Below, piece after piece: positions 15,701 to 62,436 of a DNA stretch of 64,000 bases. How positions within the stretch are numbered: position 1 is the first letter of the stretch; every line of letters starts with the position of its first letter. The notes under the pieces were generated by a model. That model searched no databases and was not told where the DNA came from. It saw nothing but the letters and a program-made list of their open reading frames with translations. The stretch is from NCBI GenBank assembly GCA_020152595.1, contig JAIGNY010003259.1:192001-256000 (forward strand), in the 5' to 3' direction. The position numbers were made by a program, and so were the translations under genes. This DNA comes from Chiridota heheva. Its lineage: Eukaryota; Echinodermata; Holothuroidea; Apodida; Chiridotidae.

Positions 15701-18700
15701 TTTTGAAATATATGGAGAGAAAAAAAATGTTATACAATAGTTCAAACTTTAAATTGATATTGCGCTTGGAACCTCAAAACTTTTGGTTTTCTGGTTGTGA
15801 ATTTGCTTAACATTTCATGACTAGTCTCATTATTAGTTTTATAATGATACTCGTGAGATCATAAGTCAAGTTCCTTTTTGCATCTTTTGTGCCTGGATTG
15901 TGGAAATGAAACTTGGCGGAAAGTTTGCTTGCAGATTTTTGATTTTGTAAAAGATTATAACCTGTTTTTATTTGTTTCATCAGGCTTTACCTGATCAACT
16001 CACCAGTAGTCGAGCGGACAGCTTGCGCTTCAAGGAAGATGGAGTAAGGGACGTTAAAGATGTGTTTCTGCCTTGGTACAATGCTTACCGATTCCTGATA
16101 CAGAATGTAGAAAGGCTGCAAAGAGTGAGTCACTTATGATAATTACTTTGAGTGCGAAAAGAATCAGCAGCCTATTCTCCTTTTTTTTTTTTTTAATGAA
16201 TCCCCAACAAAATTAATGAAACAAAACACTATTTACATCTTAATCACATAAATTCACACACGTGCATGCCACTCGCAGCCTTTTTAATGCTAAGCCTTTC
16301 AAAACCAAGCAAAGAAAATGTCAGTATTGATGGTGGGAGACAGGTTTTTTTCATTTACTTTTGTCATGGATTGTAGATCAAAATGTAGTTGATAAGAAAC
16401 ATACCCTGTTCTTAGTAGGTTGTGCATGTTTTACAGGATTTGTATTCAAGCTACATACATTTTTCTGCATGAACCTTTGCACACTTTATTATCTCAGCTT
16501 TGGTTGAAGGAATTTGAATTGCAGGGACTATTCTGATATTAATCTGTTTTATACTTTTAGGAAACAATTGATTTAATTTCAAAAATTGTTAGCACCTTTT
16601 AGGTATAATATCTCTAATGTGATTAGACAGGATGGGACACACCCAGAGATTGCATTGTACATTACGCTGACAAACGGAACTCATTTAATTTTGTTGGTTA
16701 AATTGTGTATATTTTTTTCAATTGAAAAAAGAAAAATTGCATCTCTATTCTGGGTTTTCAGATATGAAAGATGTGTATGAACAGGGTTTAACGACATATA
16801 GCTATCTCTCTCTGGCTTCCCTTTGTCAGGGTGAAAAATGGATATCGAGGTCATCTGCTATGGAGGTGGAAAATATCTACAGTTTCGGCAATTGTAATTG
16901 CGGGGAAAATGGGCATTCGCAGGAAGAATTTTTTTGAAGGAAAAAAATCCTTTTTTTGTTGTTGATAGATTTCTTGAGTAAGCAACAGTATATGTAGTAA
17001 ATATGTGCGATGGAAAATCTTGCCGTATAGTTGTGCGATGGATAGTAATTAAATTGAGAGAGAGGGAAGCATATAAGATGTATTTACTACATTAATATTA
17101 TTTCTGTCATGATTTTTCGGGGGAAGATCTTCGTACAACTTTATTCAGAACTGTGGGAAATTTTATAATTTACTTCAAGTTATACCTTACCTTCCATGCT
17201 ATAATTATGCAATCTGGTCACACGACCTGATTCTAACGCACTTCTAATTGAACCTAAAAAACGCAGTAACCAGCCAAGCCCTGACCTCCATAATACCTCT
17301 GTACCACCTCACTCTTTTTCAGCGCGTTGTTGTCACTAACATCGCTGAAAACTGGTCATTTTTATTTTATTAATAATTAACCTTTCTAACTCTTTTCTCT
17401 TTGGCAGCTTCTACTTGGAGGTTTTACGCTGCCCGTTCTCATCTGGCTCGCCTTTTCAAGTCTTCGAGATAAGGGTGAGGTAGCCATGGGTCGAGATTTC
17501 TTGCCAACCAACACGACTTTACCGTGTAGCCTACACTTAGGATAGCGGGTTTTGTCCCCATTCGTACAAAGCGAGTGGCTAGTTCGAGCGTCCTACTCGT
17601 GGTGGGTGTTTTAGGTCCTAGAGCACCAGTTGTGCCTGTCTAGGGACCTCTGCGCCCGGGAATTAGTCTTTTTCTCCCTTAGCCCCACCCGCCTCGAGGT
17701 GACCCTAGCGTTATACTATGTATAGTGTTTAGCACGTTAGGATATTTCAGTACACCTTCTCGTATGCATTAGGCCAATTTCCCTTTTCGATTTTGGCGCA
17801 TGCGCATTGGGTCGTAGTCACCGTTGGGTGTTCGTGGGGTCGCCCTGTAACAACTCTAGGGAGCTACAGTTGTTACAAGCGAGCTTATTTTCGTTTTCAC
17901 GTTAACAGCATATGAATATTTTTATTTTTCTTACACAGATTTGGGAAAAAATATTTAATTTTCAGGATTTAAATTGGGGTGTTGGAGAGACCGTGGGTGG
18001 GTCTCTCCGACATCCTATTTACAGGGGAAATGATCTTTCCTTTTTATCTTTACAGACCTCAAGTACACAGTGGTTGGTGTTTCCCACGCTACCCCAGCGC
18101 TTATCAAGTCATTACGTTGGATGCATTTTCTCGGGTTTCTACAGTTTTTTAGATAGAGAATTTTTTCGTTTAAATTTTTTTCCGGTTAAAGCAAGTGTTG
18201 TTGTTCTGTATAGATTGCTATGCCTCGTCTCTCTTTAGCGTGTCCGTAAGATCATAGTTACTTTGCCGTATTTATGTTTGTACGCATGGACATACGTTCT
18301 TCTCTTAAGAAATTTTTTTCAGTGAAAAGTTTTTCTGTTTAAGAAGGTTTTGATGTTCTGTTTAGACTGCTATGCCTCGTCTCTCTTTAGCGTGTCCGTA
18401 AGATCATACTTACTTTGCCGTATTTGTGTATGTACGCATGGATATATGTTCTTCTCTTTTCAGATATAAAAGAAATTTACTGAGAAGATACTTAGAGGCG
18501 TTGCGCCTAGAGCGGTAACAGTAGAGAGAGAGAGATAACCTCTTAGGGCGCTACACGCAGCGTCGCCTAAGTTGTAGTAAGATCCTATTGACGGGTCGAA
18601 AAGGTTCCGTTGGGCCCGGTCCCAGACGGTTCCGCAGCTCTATTTGCGGGCATAGTGCGGTTCGGGGCGGTTCCATAAACACGGTTCCATAAACACGGCC

Positions 18701-21700
18701 CCATACACACGGCCCCATACGGTTCCGTTGGACCGTCCCTAGACGGTTCTGCAGCCCTATTTGCGGGCATAGTGCGGTTCGGGGGCGGTTCCATACGGTT
18801 CCGGGATCCATACGGTTCCATACTGTTCCGTTGGACCGTCCCTGGCGGTTCCGCAGCCCTATTTGCGGGCATTGTGCAGTTCGGGGCGGTTCCATACGGT
18901 TCCGGGATCCATACGGTTCGCGGCCGGTTGTTTCGGGCGGACGGTTCCATTGGGCGGTTCCGTGGTCCATACGGTTCCGCGGCCCGTTGTTATGGGGCGG
19001 GACGGTTCCATTGGGACGGTTCCGTGATCCATACGGTTTCGCGGCCCGTTGTTACGGGCGGAGCGGTTCCATACGGTTCCGCGGCCCGTTATTCGGGCGG
19101 ACGGTTCCATACGGTTCCGCGGCCCGTTGTTACGGGCGGACGGTTCCATACTGGTTCCGCGGCCCGTTATTACGGGCGGGCCGGTTCCATTAGACGGTTC
19201 CATACGGTTCCAGCGGCCTGTTGTTACGGGCGGGCGGTTCCATTGGGCGGTTCGCGGCCCGTTATTCGGGCGGGCGTTTCCATACTGTTCGCGGCCCGTT
19301 GTTATGGGGCGGACGGTTCCATTGGCCGGTTCCATATGGTTCGCGGCCCGTTATTCGGGCGGGACGGTTCCATTGGGCGGTTCGCGGCCCGTGTTTTGCG
19401 GGTCCGTATTTAACGGGTTAACGTACATCGTAAATGCGGTTTAATCGTTATCGCCCACTAGCTACAAGCTCGTGGTCAGGTGACAGGTGACATTCTTGAC
19501 AAGAAGTATAGCATTGACAGCTATTTTTCCTCTTGGTCCCGTAGCCATTAGCTACGCAGTTCCGCGGCAATTCGACTGTCTCGTTGAAGCGTTACAAGTT
19601 TCGTATTTATTTTCACCAGTATCATGGACATGAAGGACAGGTCCCAGTGTCGATGTTTTACACCCAGGATGTCCGTGATGCGTGAGCGTGCAAACGCTTC
19701 TTTAAATTACGCTCGGTGACATCCATCTCACGTGTTCGGCGTGCAGATTATGCTGCGAGTCAAATCCCTGTACTCTTTGCAGCGATTGGGATCTAGCGGC
19801 GTGGTCGGAGCACAGACTCCACGCGACCGGTACTTTCAAAGAGCGGCGGAGAAAGTGGGAAGCGACGGTCTGATAGGCCCTTCGCCGTCTCTCGCCGCCA
19901 CCGCCACCCAGGTCCAAAGCCAGGGAGGCGGGGCCGCCGCCCACTCTCAGCGGGCGCCTCTTGAAATCTGGAAGTATAGCATTGAGACAGCTATTTTTCT
20001 TCTTGGTCCCGTAGCCAGCGGCTACGACAGTTATACGGTTCTCGGCCCATGTTTACGGGTCCGTGCGGTTCCACGGTCCGTGCTTTACGGGTCCGTAAGG
20101 TTCCATTGGACAGTTCCGCGGCCCGTGTTTACGGGTCCGTGCGGTTCCATACGATTCCACGGTCAGCGTTTACGGGTCCTTTCGCTTCCATTGGGCGGCT
20201 CCAGTGGCGGAACTTATCTTTAATGGGATAACGTACGCATGCAGTTCACCCGGTTATACGCCCACTAGCTACTATGCTCGTGGTCAGGTGACAGATGACT
20301 TTCTTTACAAGAAGTATAGCATCACGACAGCTATTTTTTTCTTGGTCCCGTAGCCATTAGCTACGCAGTTCCACGACTCGTGCAAACGCAATTAAGATTG
20401 TCTGCGTTGAACATTACCGTTCGTAATTATTTTCACCAGTATCATGGACATGGAGGACAGGTCTTCGGGTGTCGATGCTCTACACACCCATGATGTCCCG
20501 GCGTAGCGTGCTAACGCTTCTTTGATTTACGCTCCAGTCACATCCATCTCGCGCGTTACGCGTGCAGATTATGCTGCGAGTCCATTCTTGGTACTCTTCG
20601 CAGCGATTGGGTTCAAGCGGCGTGGTTGGAGCACAGACTCCACCGCGACCGGTATTTTTCAAGGTGCGACCGAGAGCTGCGGCTCCGGTGTTCGGATGCG
20701 TACGGCTCCGTAGTTTTGTAACGGGATATCGTATATGCACCCGCTAGCTACGAGCTATGTGGCCAGGTGACAAGTGATAATCTTCACAAGAAGTATAGCG
20801 CCGTGAGAGCTATTCTATTCATGGTTCCGTAGCCATTAGCTACGCAGTTCCACGATCATGTGAACACCATTAATACGATTATCCGCGTTGAGCGTTATAT
20901 TTCCGCAATTACTTTCACCAGTATCATAGGCACGGAGGACAGGCCTCCGGCGTCGCATGCGTTACGCACCTCAGAGGTCCCGCTATGCATAGCGTGCAAA
21001 CGCTTCTCTAGACCGTGCGGGCCTGTACGACTTCAGAGTTTTTGCAGCGGGATAACGTACACTGTACGATGAACCCGAAGTTGAGTTCACTAGCTAGGAA
21101 GCTACTTGGTCATAGCTACGCTGTTCCACGGCCGTGTGAACTGCCTCTGTAGGATTTTCCGTGTTGAGCGTCACAGTTCGCGATGTTTTGCGCCTATATC
21201 ATCGACACGAAGGGCAGGTCCCTAGTGTCGGTGCGTTACGCGCCTTGACTGTCCTGCGATCGCCGCTTGTAAACGCTTCTTAGGTTGCGCTTTAGTGTTA
21301 TCGACATGTTCAAACCCGTGTACACGCTGTGGTCCTCGGTTCGCGATGGGACGGCAGGCCCAAGAGGCGGCGCCCTCACGGGTCTTACGTGAGTTAGTAC
21401 CCTTTTTACGGCTAGTTGTAGAGCCATTGGATTACTTGCGGTTCCATTAGGGTCCGTCACGGCTCCGTAATCGGTTCCATACGGCCCCCCACGGCTTGTT
21501 TTCCACGACCCGTAAGGGGTCTGTAACACAACTTGGCGGCTCCGTCCGGGGCATGGGATGACGTTTGGGTCCGTAGTGCTGCTTAGTTCTACAGCAAGGT
21601 AGCATTACAGCGTCGTCACCCGATAGTTTGGAGATCTCCACGTCCGTGTGAGCTGACTTGGTGAGATTTTCGGCGTTGAGCGTCCGCGGTTCCGCATAGT

Positions 21701-24700
21701 TTTCACCAGTTTCATGGACGAGGACGAGTCCCCGTTTGTCAGTACGTCACGCTCCCAGGATGCGTCGCGTGTTAGCGCTTGCTCGGGTTTCGAGGCCTAG
21801 CGCTCGGGTGATAAGTTTTCCTTCTTTACGGGAGGCATACCATCACGAGAGCTATTCCCTCCGTGTTACGTAGTTCCACGACCGTTCAAACTGCTCTGAA
21901 TGTGATTTTATACAAACGGAGTTAAAGGCCTATACCAGCAGCGCGGCTGTGTGGTAGAGGACCAGTAGCCATGAACTACAGAGTTCCGCGGCCGTTTCTC
22001 TTACCGGGACACGTGCTGAGTGCGACGGTAGTCCCCTCTTCCCCACGCAGCTACGGTTTCGTAGCTCCGTGATGAAACAAACTCAGTTTACGACTCGTAT
22101 AGCTTGCGTGGCACGTGAACTCCTCCGTATTCCTTACGGCCTCAGTATATAAATTTTAACTATTCTCAACGGGAGCGCGTACTGCGTACATCTTCCCTGG
22201 CGTAGCCACTTACTCGGTGGCCCGTGGTGAATAGAGGTATAATGAGATAACGACTCACGTTACAGGTGTAAAATGCGTTCACGCTATCGTGGACCTAGGC
22301 GGTCCTTTTGTACTGATAGCTACTACGTTCGGGACACATTACCAGTACCAGTTGTCCCCTCGCGTAGCCACGAGCTTTTGCTCCGTGGTGCACAGAACAT
22401 AGTTGGCGGAGGACTCGTGGTTTTACTTGTCATGCTGCGCCTTTGTAGACCCATAACGGATCTATAATACTTAACGGGTTGCATACTTTGTGCGGCGTAA
22501 GTCCCCTGGTAGCCACACGCTTTTCAGCTCCGTGGTGCAGGGTGTTTAACGGAATTAACGGTCCGTGTAGTATACACAGGGCGTCACCTCTTTCGTGATT
22601 TCTACCCCAGTGCTGGGGTTTATGACTCATACGGTTGGCGTGAGTACGTTACCCCTACTTGTCAATATTAACTCCATGAAGGATATTTTTCTTGACCATA
22701 GGTGGCCTTTTGATAGACAACCTTACGTTTGGGGTAGCTATTACCAACAACGGCATGTATGGTTCATTCCATACTTTAACACCTTACAGCTGCTTTTTGC
22801 GGTTTCACGGCCTGTTACTTAACTGCGGTACAGACATACTGGTATTCGTTTTCTCGCCCGAGCCGTAGGCTCCAGCGGTTTCAAGGTTGTTACTATCGTG
22901 AGTGCGTTAACACTTTCCCCAGTCAACTTCTTAGACAAGTTTCGCTGTTGATAGGTGTGGCCTGGAGCTCACGCGGTCCCGCAACTGCTACAGTTTTCGG
23001 ACCCGGCTTGGGTGCCGTCGACTATGTTATGCGGCTCCGTGGTCTTCACGACCCATGCCGTCTCACAGCTACATAGCCTTACGGTTGGCAGCTCTGTCTA
23101 CGTTTTATATTAACGGCCTGCCCTTTGTTTCGCTAGCCTTTGATTTTTGGTCAGTAGGTTTTCAACAACCTTTGCTCAGGGTCGGCAGTTTTTTCTGGAC
23201 TGCGGATGGTGTCGTTCAGTCCCTCCGCTTTACACGTTCAGTCGGTGGTCACCCCCTTTGGTGGTGGTGCGGGTGCTCCCACCTGGTGTAAGCAACGACG
23301 TTTTCACCCGTCAGATATCACCGTCGGTGCTGACGGAGGCTTCTTGATCAAGGTCGGGCACTTTTCTTGTGACCCCTTCTGTCGAAACTTGGACGGTACT
23401 TGACCTTTTCGACAGGCAAAATGCCGGGGTTTTCGTTCACCTTTTTACCGCTAGTGCTGGCGAGGCTTTTCAGTTTTGCGCCCGGTTGTGGTCTCCTTTT
23501 CGGACAGAGAGGTACGGACTCCCGTCTTCTGGATTCGTTCCTCTCGTCTCGGCGCAGGACGAACTTTGGCTGCTCAAGACCTTGCAGGCTTCACGTGCGA
23601 GCCTCGGGTCAGGGCGATTTTTGTCTCTTTCCGGGCTCCGGCGGACTGCATCTCAGTCCCAGGCGCCGTTTGATGGTGTGGCCTCGGCCCGCCTTTCCTC
23701 GGCGTAGCATGGCTTTTCTGAGGGTTGTTCACCCCCTCCCGTTGTGGAGGTGGGCCCTCTCTCAAGCTTGGTTCCGTCATGAGCTCTGGGATAACTTGCA
23801 GCTATCCACGGCGTTTTCCAGTAGGGTCTACGGTCTTTGACTCGCGACCACTGGTAAGTTCTGGAGATCTCTTTGTAGTGTGTCATGTGACATTTTCCTC
23901 CAATAGATCGCCCAGTGGCTTTCTTTTAAAGTAGTCTGAACTGTTCATAGAACGGCCGCGGTATGCACTCGGGTTGGGGCATAACCTCTTTTCACGGGAT
24001 CTCGTGCGCGTTCGAGAAAACGCTTTTTGCGGTTTTTCTCTTGTTTTTGGTCTGACTCACTTTTCGGCGTTCGTGTTCCCCTGCTAACTTTAGCTCTTAC
24101 ACGGTTATGCGCTAACGAATTTTTCCCTTGTCCGGGATTTCTTCAATTCGTTTTTGTTGGTACACGCTTTGTTCCCAATCGTAGTTTACTCCCGGTTCCG
24201 TCTCGTGGGCCGAATCCGGTGTGGCTTAATGGCGTTTTTGTGGACACTTTGCTGTAATTGTGTCCAAGCGCTCTTCCGGTTGGCTTGTTTTTCTGAGCTT
24301 TTCGCTCAGGTTCTTTCAAGGTTTGCCTCTGTTACTGTCAACGAATGGTGCCTTGTTCAGTTTGATTGTACCTCGCCGTGGTTTACTATGTGTTAGTTCT
24401 TCCCACTCTTGAGGTCTTTCATCCTTCCGGGGAGAAGGAATTTCGTCCTTTAAACGGGATTCGATTCGTGTGAGTTTTCGTACCAGCCATTAAAAAAAAA
24501 AAAATTTGTGCGGCGACCTGAACTCCCTTCCTTCCTATCCTCGGTTGCAATCTGATTGCATAATTATAGCATGGAAGGTAAGGTATAACTTGAAGTAAAT
24601 TTACCCGCTAAGCGTAGCGGGAGGATATTTCTGAGAGTTATACTTACCTTCCATGCATCCCGCCTCCCCTTTGTTCAGGCCTCGGTGGAATGTTGGTGAG

Positions 24701-27700
24701 GTGGTACAGAGGTATTATGGAGGTCAGGGCTTGGCTGGTTACTGCGTTTTTTAGGTTCGGTTAGAAGTGCGTTAGAATCAGGTCGTGTGACCAGATTGCA
24801 TAATTATAGCATGGAAGGTAAGTATAACTCTCGTAAATATCCCCGCTACGCTTAGCGGGGTAAATTCACGGGAATATCTCTTTAATTATTCGCCTTTCTT
24901 TTATGATGCACATTTTCCTATAAGTTGGTTTGGTCAACTCTTGATCTTTGTCATCAGGAGGAGAAGCATTCTTTCCTTCACAATGAGTGCACCTTCAAAG
25001 CGCCTTCAAACATCATGGACAGGTGGATTCTCTCCTTTACGCAGTCTCTCATCAAGTTCTTCCGTCAAGAAATGGAAGGTTTGTGTTATGTTTTTTACTT
25101 GCGTACGATATTGTATTAATAAGATGTCACCTTTCAACTTCAAAACACAGTATAAGAATTCAGTTTAACTAAAGAAAATGGAGAATTATTGGACTGATGT
25201 TATCACAAACCTATGTATTGTTTTAATAGCTAAATATAGAAAACTATATCAAAATTATTGAACCAACAATATGTAACCAATCATGATGAAGTTTCTTGCT
25301 ATTTTGTTTTTCACAATTTTCTGTAGATTGTGAAACATTGTAGCTGTTCCCTCTGGGAGTCACTATTTCTTATGTAGATTATCACAGAACCTGCAAATGG
25401 TTTTAAGAACAGTCTATCAATGTTAACCACTATTATGCTAAACATACAAGGTTTCTTTAACAGTCCACCATTTTGCTTTCAGCTTACAAACTGTACACCG
25501 TTGTGCCTCGCTTGGTGAAGTTTGTGAGCATGCTGACCAACTGGTATGTAAGATCAAACAGAAAGAGACTAAAGGTGGGTATAGATATGAGTGCTGTTAT
25601 ATTTTGTATTTCCACATGTTTAAAGACATATGGACAGATAGAGTTTTGTTTTCGCCAGTAGGAACTTAAAATTCAGAACAGGGTAGTCTTTAAATTACAA
25701 AAGTAGCACCTACAGTTCTTGAGTTATGTCTAATCAACGTATCAATAATTTTTAATGAATACAAAAGTTGTGATGTTTGCAGAGAGAGGACAGATCAAAT
25801 TCTTTAGCGTAAGTCTCTAAGATTGTGTCCTAAAACTTCATAAAATGAAAATCATTATATTTTTTCTCCTGCTTAATTTTGATAGATGGTCATATTTAAC
25901 TGCTCCCATTGAAAAGGGCAGTGGTGAAGAATTGAAAAACAGTAGGTTAACGTAAAGGAATTCATAGGTGTTCTTGTTGTGATGTCACAAAATTACACTT
26001 TCAATTTTTAACAGATTTTGATAAAATATTTTGCTATTTTCATGGTTTATAGCAAAAATAAGCTCACGTTGTTGCTACCTGTCCATAAATCATTAAGTAT
26101 CCTTAATTACCTCAGCCAACAAAGTTGGACGGAGGTCATGTTTTTGCCTTATATTTGTTTGTTTGTCTGTTATCAAGATATCTCAAGAACTGATGATTAG
26201 ATTTGGATTAAACTTTGTGTGTGGTTTTGATACTGCTTAAGGAAGAAGTGATTAAATTTTGAGACATTGGAACAGGGAAAGGGTGCAAATAGAGGGGTGT
26301 GGACATTTTAAGGTGAGTTTGTCTGTCATTAGAATATCTCAATAACTGATGAATCGATTGGATTAAATTTGATGTGTGGTTTTATTATTGCTTAACCCTT
26401 ACTTTACCAGCACTTTTTTTGAAAACGCACTTAGAGGGTCCTCTGTCTTCGGAGCAGCACAGCAGAGTTGGGATTGATCCACTTCAGTGACCCAGTGGGC
26501 CCACCGGGACCATGCTGCATCTACTTTAAGTTGGCTCACTTGTCGCGGGTTGATTAACCCTTACTCTACCTGCACTTTGTTTGAAAACGCGCTTGGGAGG
26601 CGGGGTTAAAGACAGGGCACCCAAAACAGCGATAATATCGCGATGTGGTAGAGTAAGGGTTAAGCACAGGCTGATTATTGAAGGGTCCTCTTGTCTTCCG
26701 AGCAGCAGAGTCGGGCTGATTTCACTTCAGTGACTCAGTGGGCCGCCCACTGGGACCATGTTGCATCTATTTTTGAGTTGCCACACTTGTCACGGGTTGA
26801 TTAATCCTTACTCTACCAACACTTTTTTGAAAACACGCTTTGGGCGGGATCAATGATGGGGCACCCAAAATGGTGATCATATCGCCGTGTGGTAGAGTAA
26901 AGGTTAAGGAACAAGTGATTCAAATTTGGGACGTCTCGATGCAAGGGAAGGGCAGAAATTGAGGGGTTGGGATGTTTAGGGTAAGTTCTGTTAAGTGCCA
27001 TGAAAAGAAACCCAACAATCAATTGTTTGGATTCATTGAAAATTAAATTAAGTGGTCTCTACTATCAATGTAATAAGAACAAATGGTTTCTGCCATAAAT
27101 GGAAAATGATGGAATGTGAATGTTAACTAAATGGTTTTCAAACAATGAATGCTTAGCTTGAATTAAAGTGAAAACAATGATATGGCTTTGGAAGAAATCA
27201 ATCAGAAGATAATTTTCAAGTGTTCCGAATGCAAATGATCCTTACAGATCAAAACTTGGGGATGAATCTTGGTGAGCCTAGGATTTCTGAGTTAAATTAT
27301 AGTGGGTATTGGGATCGAATGAACTCTAAAACTATTCTAGGCATTGTTAAAATTGCAGCGGTGGCGGAAGTATGCGCTCTACAGAGTGCTAATATTTTAG
27401 TTTAAAACATGGATTTCTCTCCTCGTAGGGTTGTCATGCAATATTTTACTTTTAATATAAGGAAGATTGTGTAAAGTTATATTTTGATGAAATTTTGGCA
27501 TAAATATAAGTTTGCTTTAGTGAATACTTCATAATCTTTCTTGTATAAAGGTTGGGGATTGATATCTGTGACTGATTTAGTGGTTTGTTGTTTGCTTCAA
27601 TGCATGAGCTTGATGACTTGAATATGATGCTCACATTCAAAAGGCGCTACAACATGCACCCAATAGGAAAACAAACAAAAATAGTTTTTGATATGTGTAC

Positions 27701-60290: not shown

Positions 60291-60346
60291 GGACAATCTT
60301 TGAAGAAAAGAAAAGAAAGAGAATTTAATTTATTGTTTACTACAAA

Positions 60347-61580
<1,234 letters not shown>

Positions 61581-61872
61581 CGACCAATCAGAAACGTTGG
61601 ATTGAAGTGTATCTTTTATCTCCATGTTAAACCTGTGAAAGGAGTGCTAAAGCGAATGTAAGGGCGCTTGTTTTTGCGAATTTCACAGATATATTATCAA
61701 CAACAGACTGACAGATAGACAAACTTCATGCATCCGTAGCTCACAGACGACGTGAGGGCAAAGGTCATTTGAATATTCATATTAGATAGAAAATTACTGC
61801 GTGCTAGATAAGCATTCATATTTTTGAGGAACCCCTAAAAATACGCCCTTACTTTTCGGTTTAGTGTGGCCT

Positions 61873-62400
61873 TCAAGACAACCAGCCTTTTTTCCATTTT
61901 TGTTCACATAAAAGTAATTTGTCACTGGATCGACGAGCACGAGTAGAAATATATGATTTTAAAAGGTCAGAGATATAATTTGGAGCACACCCAATCAACG
62001 ATTTGTAAACAATAAGCAGTATTTTATATATTACCTTTTTTGACACAGGGAGCCAATGCAAGTCTTTTAGGATTGGAGTAATGTGACAAGATTTCTCTGA
62101 GAGCGTTATAACAAAGAGCTTACGCTCTTTGGTTATAAGGCGTGCAGCAGAGTTTTGAATCAGTTGAAGACGGTGAATTTGTTTTTGAGGAAGACCATAC
62201 AGTAGAGAGTTTCCCATATCTAGACGTGAAGTTACAAAGGAATGTATGATTTGAACAGTAGCAGTAGAGTCAAGATATTTCCTTATTTTACCAATGTTTC
62301 GAAGATGAAAAGCAGCAGTGCGGGTAACCCGTGAAATATGAGGGTTCATACTCATGGTTGAATCAAAGATGACACCTAGGTTACGTGCTTGAGCGCCCTT
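61873..62400 (-). pseudogene. CR1/L2-type reverse transcriptase fragment
   Basis: From ~62400 downward it reads ARNLGVIFDSTMSMNPHI, HLRNIGKIRKYL, then SFVTSRLDMGNSLLYGLP, RLQLIQNSAARLI, HITPILKDLHWLPV and YKSLIGCAPNYI. This is the segment downstream of the YADD box in CR1/L2/Jockey-type elements. The core palm is absent; the upstream side is cut by a small hAT-like element at 62437. Open for 160 codons, so relatively young, but truncated. Confidence 0.85.
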
Positions 62401-62436
62401 ATCAGGGTGGCTTGTTCAGTCCGAATGTCAGAGGAC

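What the first reader, a model, noticed from the sequence alone, without database searches (positions are those of the whole stretch)
17168..24866. DIRS architecture without DIRS proteins: a 7.7-kb DIRS-like element in an IARS1 intron
Seen directly: ~128-bp inverted terminal repeats (17185-17312 and 24696-24823), and an internal segment at 24554-24656 that is the reverse complement of the left outer end fused to the right outer end. Known: DIRS retrotransposons have inverted repeats plus an internal complementary region used to make a circle for tyrosine-recombinase integration. The inferred circle junction centres on ATT/AATT, present at both ends. No RT or recombinase is recognisable, so it would be a large non-autonomous DIRS relative with a repeat-filled interior, a type I do not know to be well described.
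Basis: partly seen in the sequence, partly recalled or inferred. Interest (0 to 1): 0.85.

Follow-up and report, generated by a model that had tools for sequence, protein, structure and literature searches.

The report
Coding-free DIRS retrotransposon with coding partner
A 7.7-kb repeat in an intron of a housekeeping gene is a parasitic form of a DIRS retrotransposon that has lost its protein genes, apparently moved by coding relatives with the same ends, and its many copies offer a way to test how this odd class of element copies its own ends.

Summary
Window 17168-24866 is a complete DIRS1-like retrotransposon without protein genes, in an IARS1 intron. Its ITRs are 98% complementary over 127 nt; an internal complementary region (ICR, 24554-24656) is the reverse complement of right end joined to left end, overlapping on AAT. 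Of 20 other loci fetched by their left end, 17 have a right-end match and 16 an ICR match of 85 nt or more. Paralogous empty sites of three copies show one ATT or ATA and no duplication. No Pfam family reaches its cut-off in six frames; variation between copies shows no codon phase. Two fetched copies with the same ends (L015, L021) carry broken DIRS genes. L021's recombinase piece has 154 matches in the genome, four in open frames of 859-989 aa; both of these that I sampled end in the window's right end. Most likely it is a non-autonomous DIRS served by a coding partner; my searches found none described among DIRS1-like elements. Further result: a 33-nt right-extension core is unlinked between terminus and ICR of the same copy (70 copies), although a nearby segment agrees in 64 of 69. 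Faithful copying of the end from the own ICR does not explain this.

The parts
17168..24866 (+). whole element, 7699 bp, DIRS1-like, no protein-coding genes recognised
   Evidence: both ends shared with other loci; empty sites of other copies
17168..17312 (+). left terminus: begins ATT (17168-17170), divergent ITR, then conserved ITR to 17312
24696..24866 (+). right terminus: ITR 24696-24822 plus right extension, ends ATT (24864-24866)
24828..24860 (+). 33-nt variable core of the right extension, containing an 8-bp hairpin CCCCGCTACGCTTAGCGGGG (24841-24860)
   Evidence: hairpin seen directly in the sequence
24554..24656 (+). ICR: left half 24554-24600 (revcomp of the left end) and right half 24598-24656 (revcomp of the right end), overlapping on AAT 24598-24600
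18585..19410 (+). G+C-rich short-repeat region with CCCGT....ACGGG hairpins (by eye); also present in coding relative L021
   Evidence: families D1-D6, D9, D14; RNA fold z -3.1 for 18900-19420
19410..21900 (+). diverged repeated modules (copies 275-1136 nt apart); L021 matches this module once, the window holds several where L021 has its pol genes
   Evidence: families D7, D10-D13, D15, D17-D20
21900..24410 (+). family-specific interior without coding constraint; pieces in 18 of 20 fetched loci, not found in L015 or L021 by blastn
15999..16118 (+). stretch of the IARS1 exon upstream of the insertion
24961..25083 (+). stretch of the IARS1 exon downstream of the insertion

Best explanation
This is a non-autonomous DIRS1-like retrotransposon. 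Its RNA is copied by the reverse transcriptase of a coding DIRS lineage in the same genome that has the same ends and ICR. The ICR, which is the complement of the joined ends, bridges the two ends so that a circle with the junction GTAA-ATT-TAC can form. The partner's tyrosine recombinase then crosses that junction with a genomic ATT or ATA, leaving no target duplication. Shown here: the anatomy, the multicopy family, the target chemistry in three copies (one ATT/ATA, no duplication), absence of recognisable coding, and copies with the same ends that carry RT, RNase H and recombinase homology (broken in the two read through; open frames over the recombinase elsewhere). Inferred: that the partner proteins act on it in trans, the circle itself, and the role of the ICR.
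For: Anatomy. Copies at many loci. Empty sites with a single ATT or ATA: L022 against two paralogous stretches in L014, L024 against neighbouring tandem units (exactly ATT in 2 of the 6 units printed; the others differ by small indels), L011 against one stretch in the same locus at 76%. The three bases after the terminal TAA are ATA 33, ATT 27 and other 10 of 70 right ends; right end fused head to tail to a left end in 3 of 70 (L063, L066, L103), the joint a circle would carry. No Pfam family above its cut-off in six frames; no phase bias of polymorphic positions and indels mostly of 1-2 nt in 14-15 copies. L021: RVT_1 at 7.9e-08, RNase H and recombinase matches by tblastn; L015: recombinase frame with 86 relatives, 10 of them with PF00589. 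L021's recombinase piece has 154 matches in the genome, four with open frames of 859-989 aa and no stop inside; pieces 0.8-1.3 kb downstream at two of these match the window's right end and ICR (L105 92.7% over 381 nt, L106 87.2% over 421 nt). Among the 100 listed right edges, those on C336, C212, C459 and C496 lie 0.96-1.04 kb downstream of a recombinase match in the expected orientation.
Against: No transcript, circle or new insertion was observed. The two coding copies read through (L015, L021) are broken; Pfam finds no recombinase domain in either, and neither place is among the 16 PF00589 places. The long open frames were seen only as lengths and were not shown to encode a whole RT-RNase H-recombinase set. 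The right extension of a copy does not match its own ICR better than chance, which is against the simplest form of the published copying model. L028's comparisons do not give a clean triplet, and 4 of 6 L024 units do not show exactly ATT. L018 shares 134 nt of left flank with the window at 81%, so flanks are not all unrelated.
Confidence: 0.92

Rival explanations
1. It is only a decayed coding DIRS copy: one element that lost its genes after insertion.
For: Other copies (L015, L021) show decayed DIRS genes.
Against: Pieces of the same non-coding interior (21900-24410) occur in 18 of 20 fetched loci, at 90-96% identity in the 15 that I compared region by region (L010, L015, L017, L021 and L027 left out); L021 has pol where the window has modules, and another interior. 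A form shared by many insertions was multiplied in that form.
Confidence: 0.04
2. It is a foldback or TIR DNA transposon that happens to have an inverted internal repeat.
For: Inverted terminal repeats.
Against: No target duplication in three copies; the ICR equals the joined ends; coding copies with the same ends carry RT and tyrosine recombinase homology.
Confidence: 0.01
3. The interior encodes an unknown protein, so the element is autonomous by another route.
For: Stop-to-stop frames up to 244 aa in the window and up to 537 aa in the G+C-rich repeats of other copies (L020, not counting frames over N runs).
Against: The longest frames lie in the short-repeat region, which was not phase-tested; in 17313-18550 and 19420-24490 there is no codon phase and indels of 1-2 nt prevail; no Pfam match above cut-off.
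Confidence: 0.03

Closest known systems
DIRS1-like retrotransposons (PMC3266345, sections 3 and 10 read; e.g. SkoDIRS1 of Saccoglossus kowalevskii)
   Same: ATT at both ends, AAT circular junction, ITR, right extension, two-part ICR near the right end, a short sequence common to both ITRs and both ICR halves, no target duplication
   Different: no gag, RT, RNase H or recombinase genes recognised; 7.7 kb against 3974-6283 bp in their 28 elements
L015/L021 lineage and long-frame copies in the same genome
   Same: same ends and ICR plan (L021's ICR is degenerate); L021 also shares 17168-19951 at 85.7%
   Different: L015 and L021 carry gag-like (by eye) and recombinase sequence in the middle, L021 also RT and RNase H
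SIRE, the non-autonomous relative of VIPER in Trypanosoma cruzi (PMC6681497, passages read)
   Same: non-autonomous derivative of a tyrosine-recombinase retroelement, keeping both ends
   Different: a few hundred bp, VIPER group with split direct repeats, not ITR plus ICR
LARDs (large non-autonomous derivatives of LTR retrotransposons; recalled)
   Same: long non-coding interior, ends shared with a coding partner
   Different: LTRs, integrase and target duplication instead of ITR/ICR and recombinase

Membership tests
DIRS1-like (structure) | inverted terminal repeats | tested here: met
   127 nt, 98%
DIRS1-like (structure) | ICR complementary to both ends, halves overlapping on the 3-bp circular junction | tested here: met
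   24554-24656, AAT overlap
DIRS1-like (structure) | right extension complementary only to the ICR | tested here: met
   right end longer than left by about 25 nt, present in the ICR
DIRS1-like (structure) | at least 10 nt common to both ITRs and both ICR halves | tested here: met
   TTACCTTCCATGC in all four in the window
DIRS1-like (structure) | integration without target duplication at a site like the circular junction | tested here: met
   empty sites of L011, L022, L024; no empty site was found for the window's own insertion
DIRS1-like (coding) | RT / RNase H encoded | tested here: not met
   window: none recognised; seen in a relative with the same ends, L021
DIRS1-like (coding) | tyrosine recombinase encoded | tested here: not met
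   window: none recognised; seen in the L015/L021 lineage
DIRS1-like (coding) | gag and methyltransferase | not tested
   gag-like frames in L015/L021 only read by eye; methyltransferase not searched for by itself
DIRS1-like (mechanism) | circular DNA intermediate | not testable with these tools
   only indirect: head-to-tail joints in 3 of 70 right ends

The most novel reading that the evidence does not exclude
In this family the right extension at the element's end is not copied from the element's own ICR. It is rewritten at each insertion, either from the ICR of another co-copied element or by an error-prone, hairpin-prone end-joining step. Recombination between ICR core and right end may also occur: in L012 the stretch between the two is inverted with both breakpoints at or next to the core.
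Probability: 0.35. Interest if true: 0.75.

Novelty: new variant of a known kind. Interest (0 to 1): 0.55.

Why it matters
DIRS elements are explained by a model in which the ICR restores the ends and makes a circle. [quoted passage not shown] A family reduced to ITRs, ICR and non-coding filler shows which sequences were kept in cis, and its copies (1121 exact ICR cores) let the end-copying step be tested from sequence alone. It also means that annotation that looks for DIRS proteins will miss such copies.

Tried and rejected
Rfam on 17000-25000: 0 matches. tblastn/tblastx for decayed DIRS genes inside the window element: only weak, inconsistent matches, so I do not claim that its interior descends from pol. 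The 16 PF00589 places were first taken as partner candidates: in the 3.2-3.5 kb held for each, blastn finds nothing like the window's ends (one 44-nt match at E 0.1 elsewhere); they are other DIRS families, other recombinases, and one that reads like bacterial sequence (L029). Post-insertion mutation as the sole cause of the variable right extension: the arms and the right ITR vary less (0.1-0.7% substitutions per site, ICR left half 1.7%) than the extension (3.2-3.4%), but the spacer between ICR and ITR varies more (5.3%), so the extension is not uniquely variable; what stands out is that it is unlinked. Sequencing error as its sole cause: unlikely, because some allele frequencies differ between terminus and ICR (GGG form 16 against 42 of 70, CCA form 2 against 12 of 70, short CTC 12 against 24 of 70; the other two forms tested do not differ) and alleles are linked within the terminus and, more weakly, within the ICR; homopolymer errors may add to it. 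The species was not identified; the two recombinase relatives named after an animal are from echinoderms (Diadema, Antedon). Copy number was not measured beyond exact word counts (529 right edges; 1121 ICR cores). The search for copies with the same outer end but another interior (pattern) did not complete and was dropped.
Full report
What is there. The window's element runs from 17168 to 24866. It starts and ends with ATT, has inverted terminal repeats of 127 nt at 98% complementarity, and holds near its right end a segment (24554-24656) that is the reverse complement of the right end joined to the left end. The two halves of that segment overlap on AAT. It sits, with its ICR end downstream, in an intron of the isoleucyl-tRNA synthetase gene, between exon stretches that match residues 635-671 and 677-713 of the cytoplasmic enzyme.

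It is a multicopy family. A search with the left end listed 40 scored places at 98-100% identity, the window included, out of 2313 first-look candidates in a 1.1-Gb genome; these 40 are the best ones, so that identity is biased upward. I fetched 20 of the other places. All 20 hold the left end, because they were chosen by it. 17 of 20 have a right-end match of more than 150 nt (not L010, L020, L027); two of the 17 are cut short in the extension (L019, L026), and in L012 the stretch is inverted. 16 of 20 have an ICR match of 85 nt or more. Flanks mostly differ; L018 shares 134 nt of left flank with the window at 81%. Pieces of the interior 21900-24410 occur in 18 of 20, not in L015 and L021. 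Some copies have internal deletions (elements of about 3.5-4.3 kb in L014, L015, L017). Exact words count 529 right edges and 1121 ICR cores, each with 0 for the reversed word.

How it inserts. For 14 loci and the window I joined the flanks and looked for uninterrupted paralogs in the sequence at hand; five joins had hits across the joint, of which those of L014 are the locus itself. L022 matches two paralogous stretches with exactly one ATT at the insertion point. L024 matches its own neighbouring tandem units; of six alignments printed, two show exactly one ATT and the others differ by small indels. L011 matches one stretch, 76% identical, with ATA. L028 is compatible with no duplication but gives no clean triplet. 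No target duplication is seen. In 70 right ends the three bases after TAA are ATA 33, ATT 27, other 10; 21 of 70 right flanks hold a short TA run in their first 15 nt; three of 70 right ends run straight into a left end (L063, L066, L103). This is what recombination at a short identical core predicts, as described for DIRS1-like elements (PMC3266345, section 3 read).

It codes for nothing recognisable. Six-frame Pfam scans with X at stops give nothing above a family cut-off (one sub-threshold C2-domain match at 0.0024). In 14 or 15 copies compared per region (15 chosen of 20), polymorphic positions show no phase bias (p 0.25-0.99) and indels of 1-2 nt prevail (regions 17313-18550, 19420-24490 and the left ITR; the short-repeat region 18551-19419 was not tested).

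A coding partner exists. L021 and L015, fetched only for their ends, carry DIRS homology: RVT_1 in L021 (7.9e-08); RNase H and recombinase matches in L021 and recombinase matches in L015 to other DIRS of this genome; and in L015 a recombinase frame with 86 relatives, 10 of them with PF00589, aligned. Both are broken, and Pfam itself finds no recombinase domain in either. L021 shares 17168-19951 (85.7%) and 24441-24861 (79%) with the window; where L021 has pol, the window has repeated modules and a family-specific interior. Searching the genome with the L021 recombinase piece gave 154 matches (150 of 2918 first-look candidates scored), four of them with open frames of 859, 860, 978 and 989 aa and no stop inside. 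At the 989- and 978-aa places I fetched the stretch 0.8-1.3 kb downstream: L105 and L106 hold the window's right end and ICR at 92.7% and 87.2% identity (L105's extension is shortened). Four further right-edge matches (C212, C336, C459, C496) lie 0.96-1.04 kb downstream of a recombinase match in the expected orientation (my comparison of the listings; 100 of 529 right edges are listed). So copies with long open frames and the same right end exist; whether any is active is unknown.

Is it a DIRS1-like element? By structure, the features I could test are met: ITR, two-part ICR, 3-bp circular junction, right extension, a short sequence shared by both ITRs and both ICR halves, no duplication in three copies (compared with section 10 and Table 3 of PMC3266345). 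By coding content it is not: none of the proteins is recognised. The accurate name is a non-autonomous DIRS1-like element.

An unexpected result. The right extension contains a 33-nt core with an 8-bp hairpin. I compared it at the terminus and in the ICR of 74 copies: 60 of the first 64 right edges listed (left out: one near a contig start, two with another word, one already held), the window, and 13 of the 16 earlier loci with an ICR (L012, L019 and L026 left out for their inverted or shortened right ends). 70 were readable at both places. The commonest form occurs at 37 of 70 termini but only 18 of 70 ICRs. The other forms are mostly unique: 32 distinct of 33 at termini, 46 distinct of 52 in ICRs. 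Terminus and own ICR are identical in 12 of 70, all of the commonest form, against 9.5 expected by shuffling; the mean edit distance to the own ICR is 3.29 against 3.39 for shuffled pairs (937 of 5000 shuffles as low). Alleles are linked within the terminus (several pairs p below 0.003) and more weakly within the ICR (best p 0.005 of 10 pairs, uncorrected), but none of five tested forms is associated between the two (p 0.25-1). As an internal control, a nearby segment shared by the ICR and the right ITR is identical within a copy in 64 of 69 (five of 74 not readable), against 31.8 by shuffling (0 of 5000). That may reflect two subfamilies, but it shows that the two places are otherwise read and inherited coherently. 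Faithful templating of the end by the own ICR predicts agreement in the right extension, and there is none beyond chance. Templating by another element's ICR, or an error-prone end step, would fit. The extension is not the only variable stretch: the spacer between ICR and ITR varies more. Sequencing error is unlikely to be the sole cause, because three of five allele frequencies differ between the two places.

Literature. Four word searches aimed at non-autonomous DIRS and one on the right extension showed no described non-autonomous DIRS1-like element in their listings or in the passages that I opened; I did not open every listed paper. The nearest is SIRE of the VIPER group (PMC6681497, passages). 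The library lacks most subscription papers and no repeat database was searched, so an entry elsewhere is possible.

Verdict. Confirmed observation, interpretation supported, new variant of a known kind. Non-autonomous partners are expected for any retroelement class, which limits surprise; the reduced cis-set and the unlinked right extension raise it.

Noticed in passing
L012:154-492: The stretch from the ICR core to the right terminus is inverted relative to the family, with both breakpoints at or next to the AATTTAC core, as if recombinase had acted between ICR and right end.
   Followed up: partly
window 24828-24860 and the ICR: The right-extension core varies more than the ITR and arms beside it, at the terminus and in the ICR, and is unlinked between the two within copies.
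   Followed up: partly
L030, L031, L032, L036, L039, L040, L041, L043: Other DIRS families of this genome with RNase H- and recombinase-like frames; by eye their right ends share GGTAAGT...CTCGT with the window element although the rest differs.
   Followed up: partly
window 18585-19410 and 20030-20200: Arrays of short G+C-rich hairpins (CCCGT....ACGGG, by eye); 18900-19420 folds more stably as RNA than 100 shuffles, z -3.1.
   Followed up: no
window 24815-24826: AAGGTAAGTAT near the right end reads like a splice donor in the gene's sense, shortly before an IARS1 exon (recalled consensus, not tested).
   Followed up: no
L106: This coding-lineage copy has ATATTAATA both in its ICR and in its right ITR where most copies have ATATTATA or ATAATTATA: a concerted change of the two places.
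   Followed up: no
L029 (G000:C984): Contig stretch with a phage-type integrase frame and neighbours that read like bacterial proteins; possible contaminant contig.
   Followed up: no
window 60300-61650: Long TA microsatellites; TA runs are also frequent at this family's insertion sites.
   Followed up: no
window 61873-62415 (-): A 180-aa open frame that looks like the end of a non-LTR retrotransposon protein (by eye).
   Followed up: no
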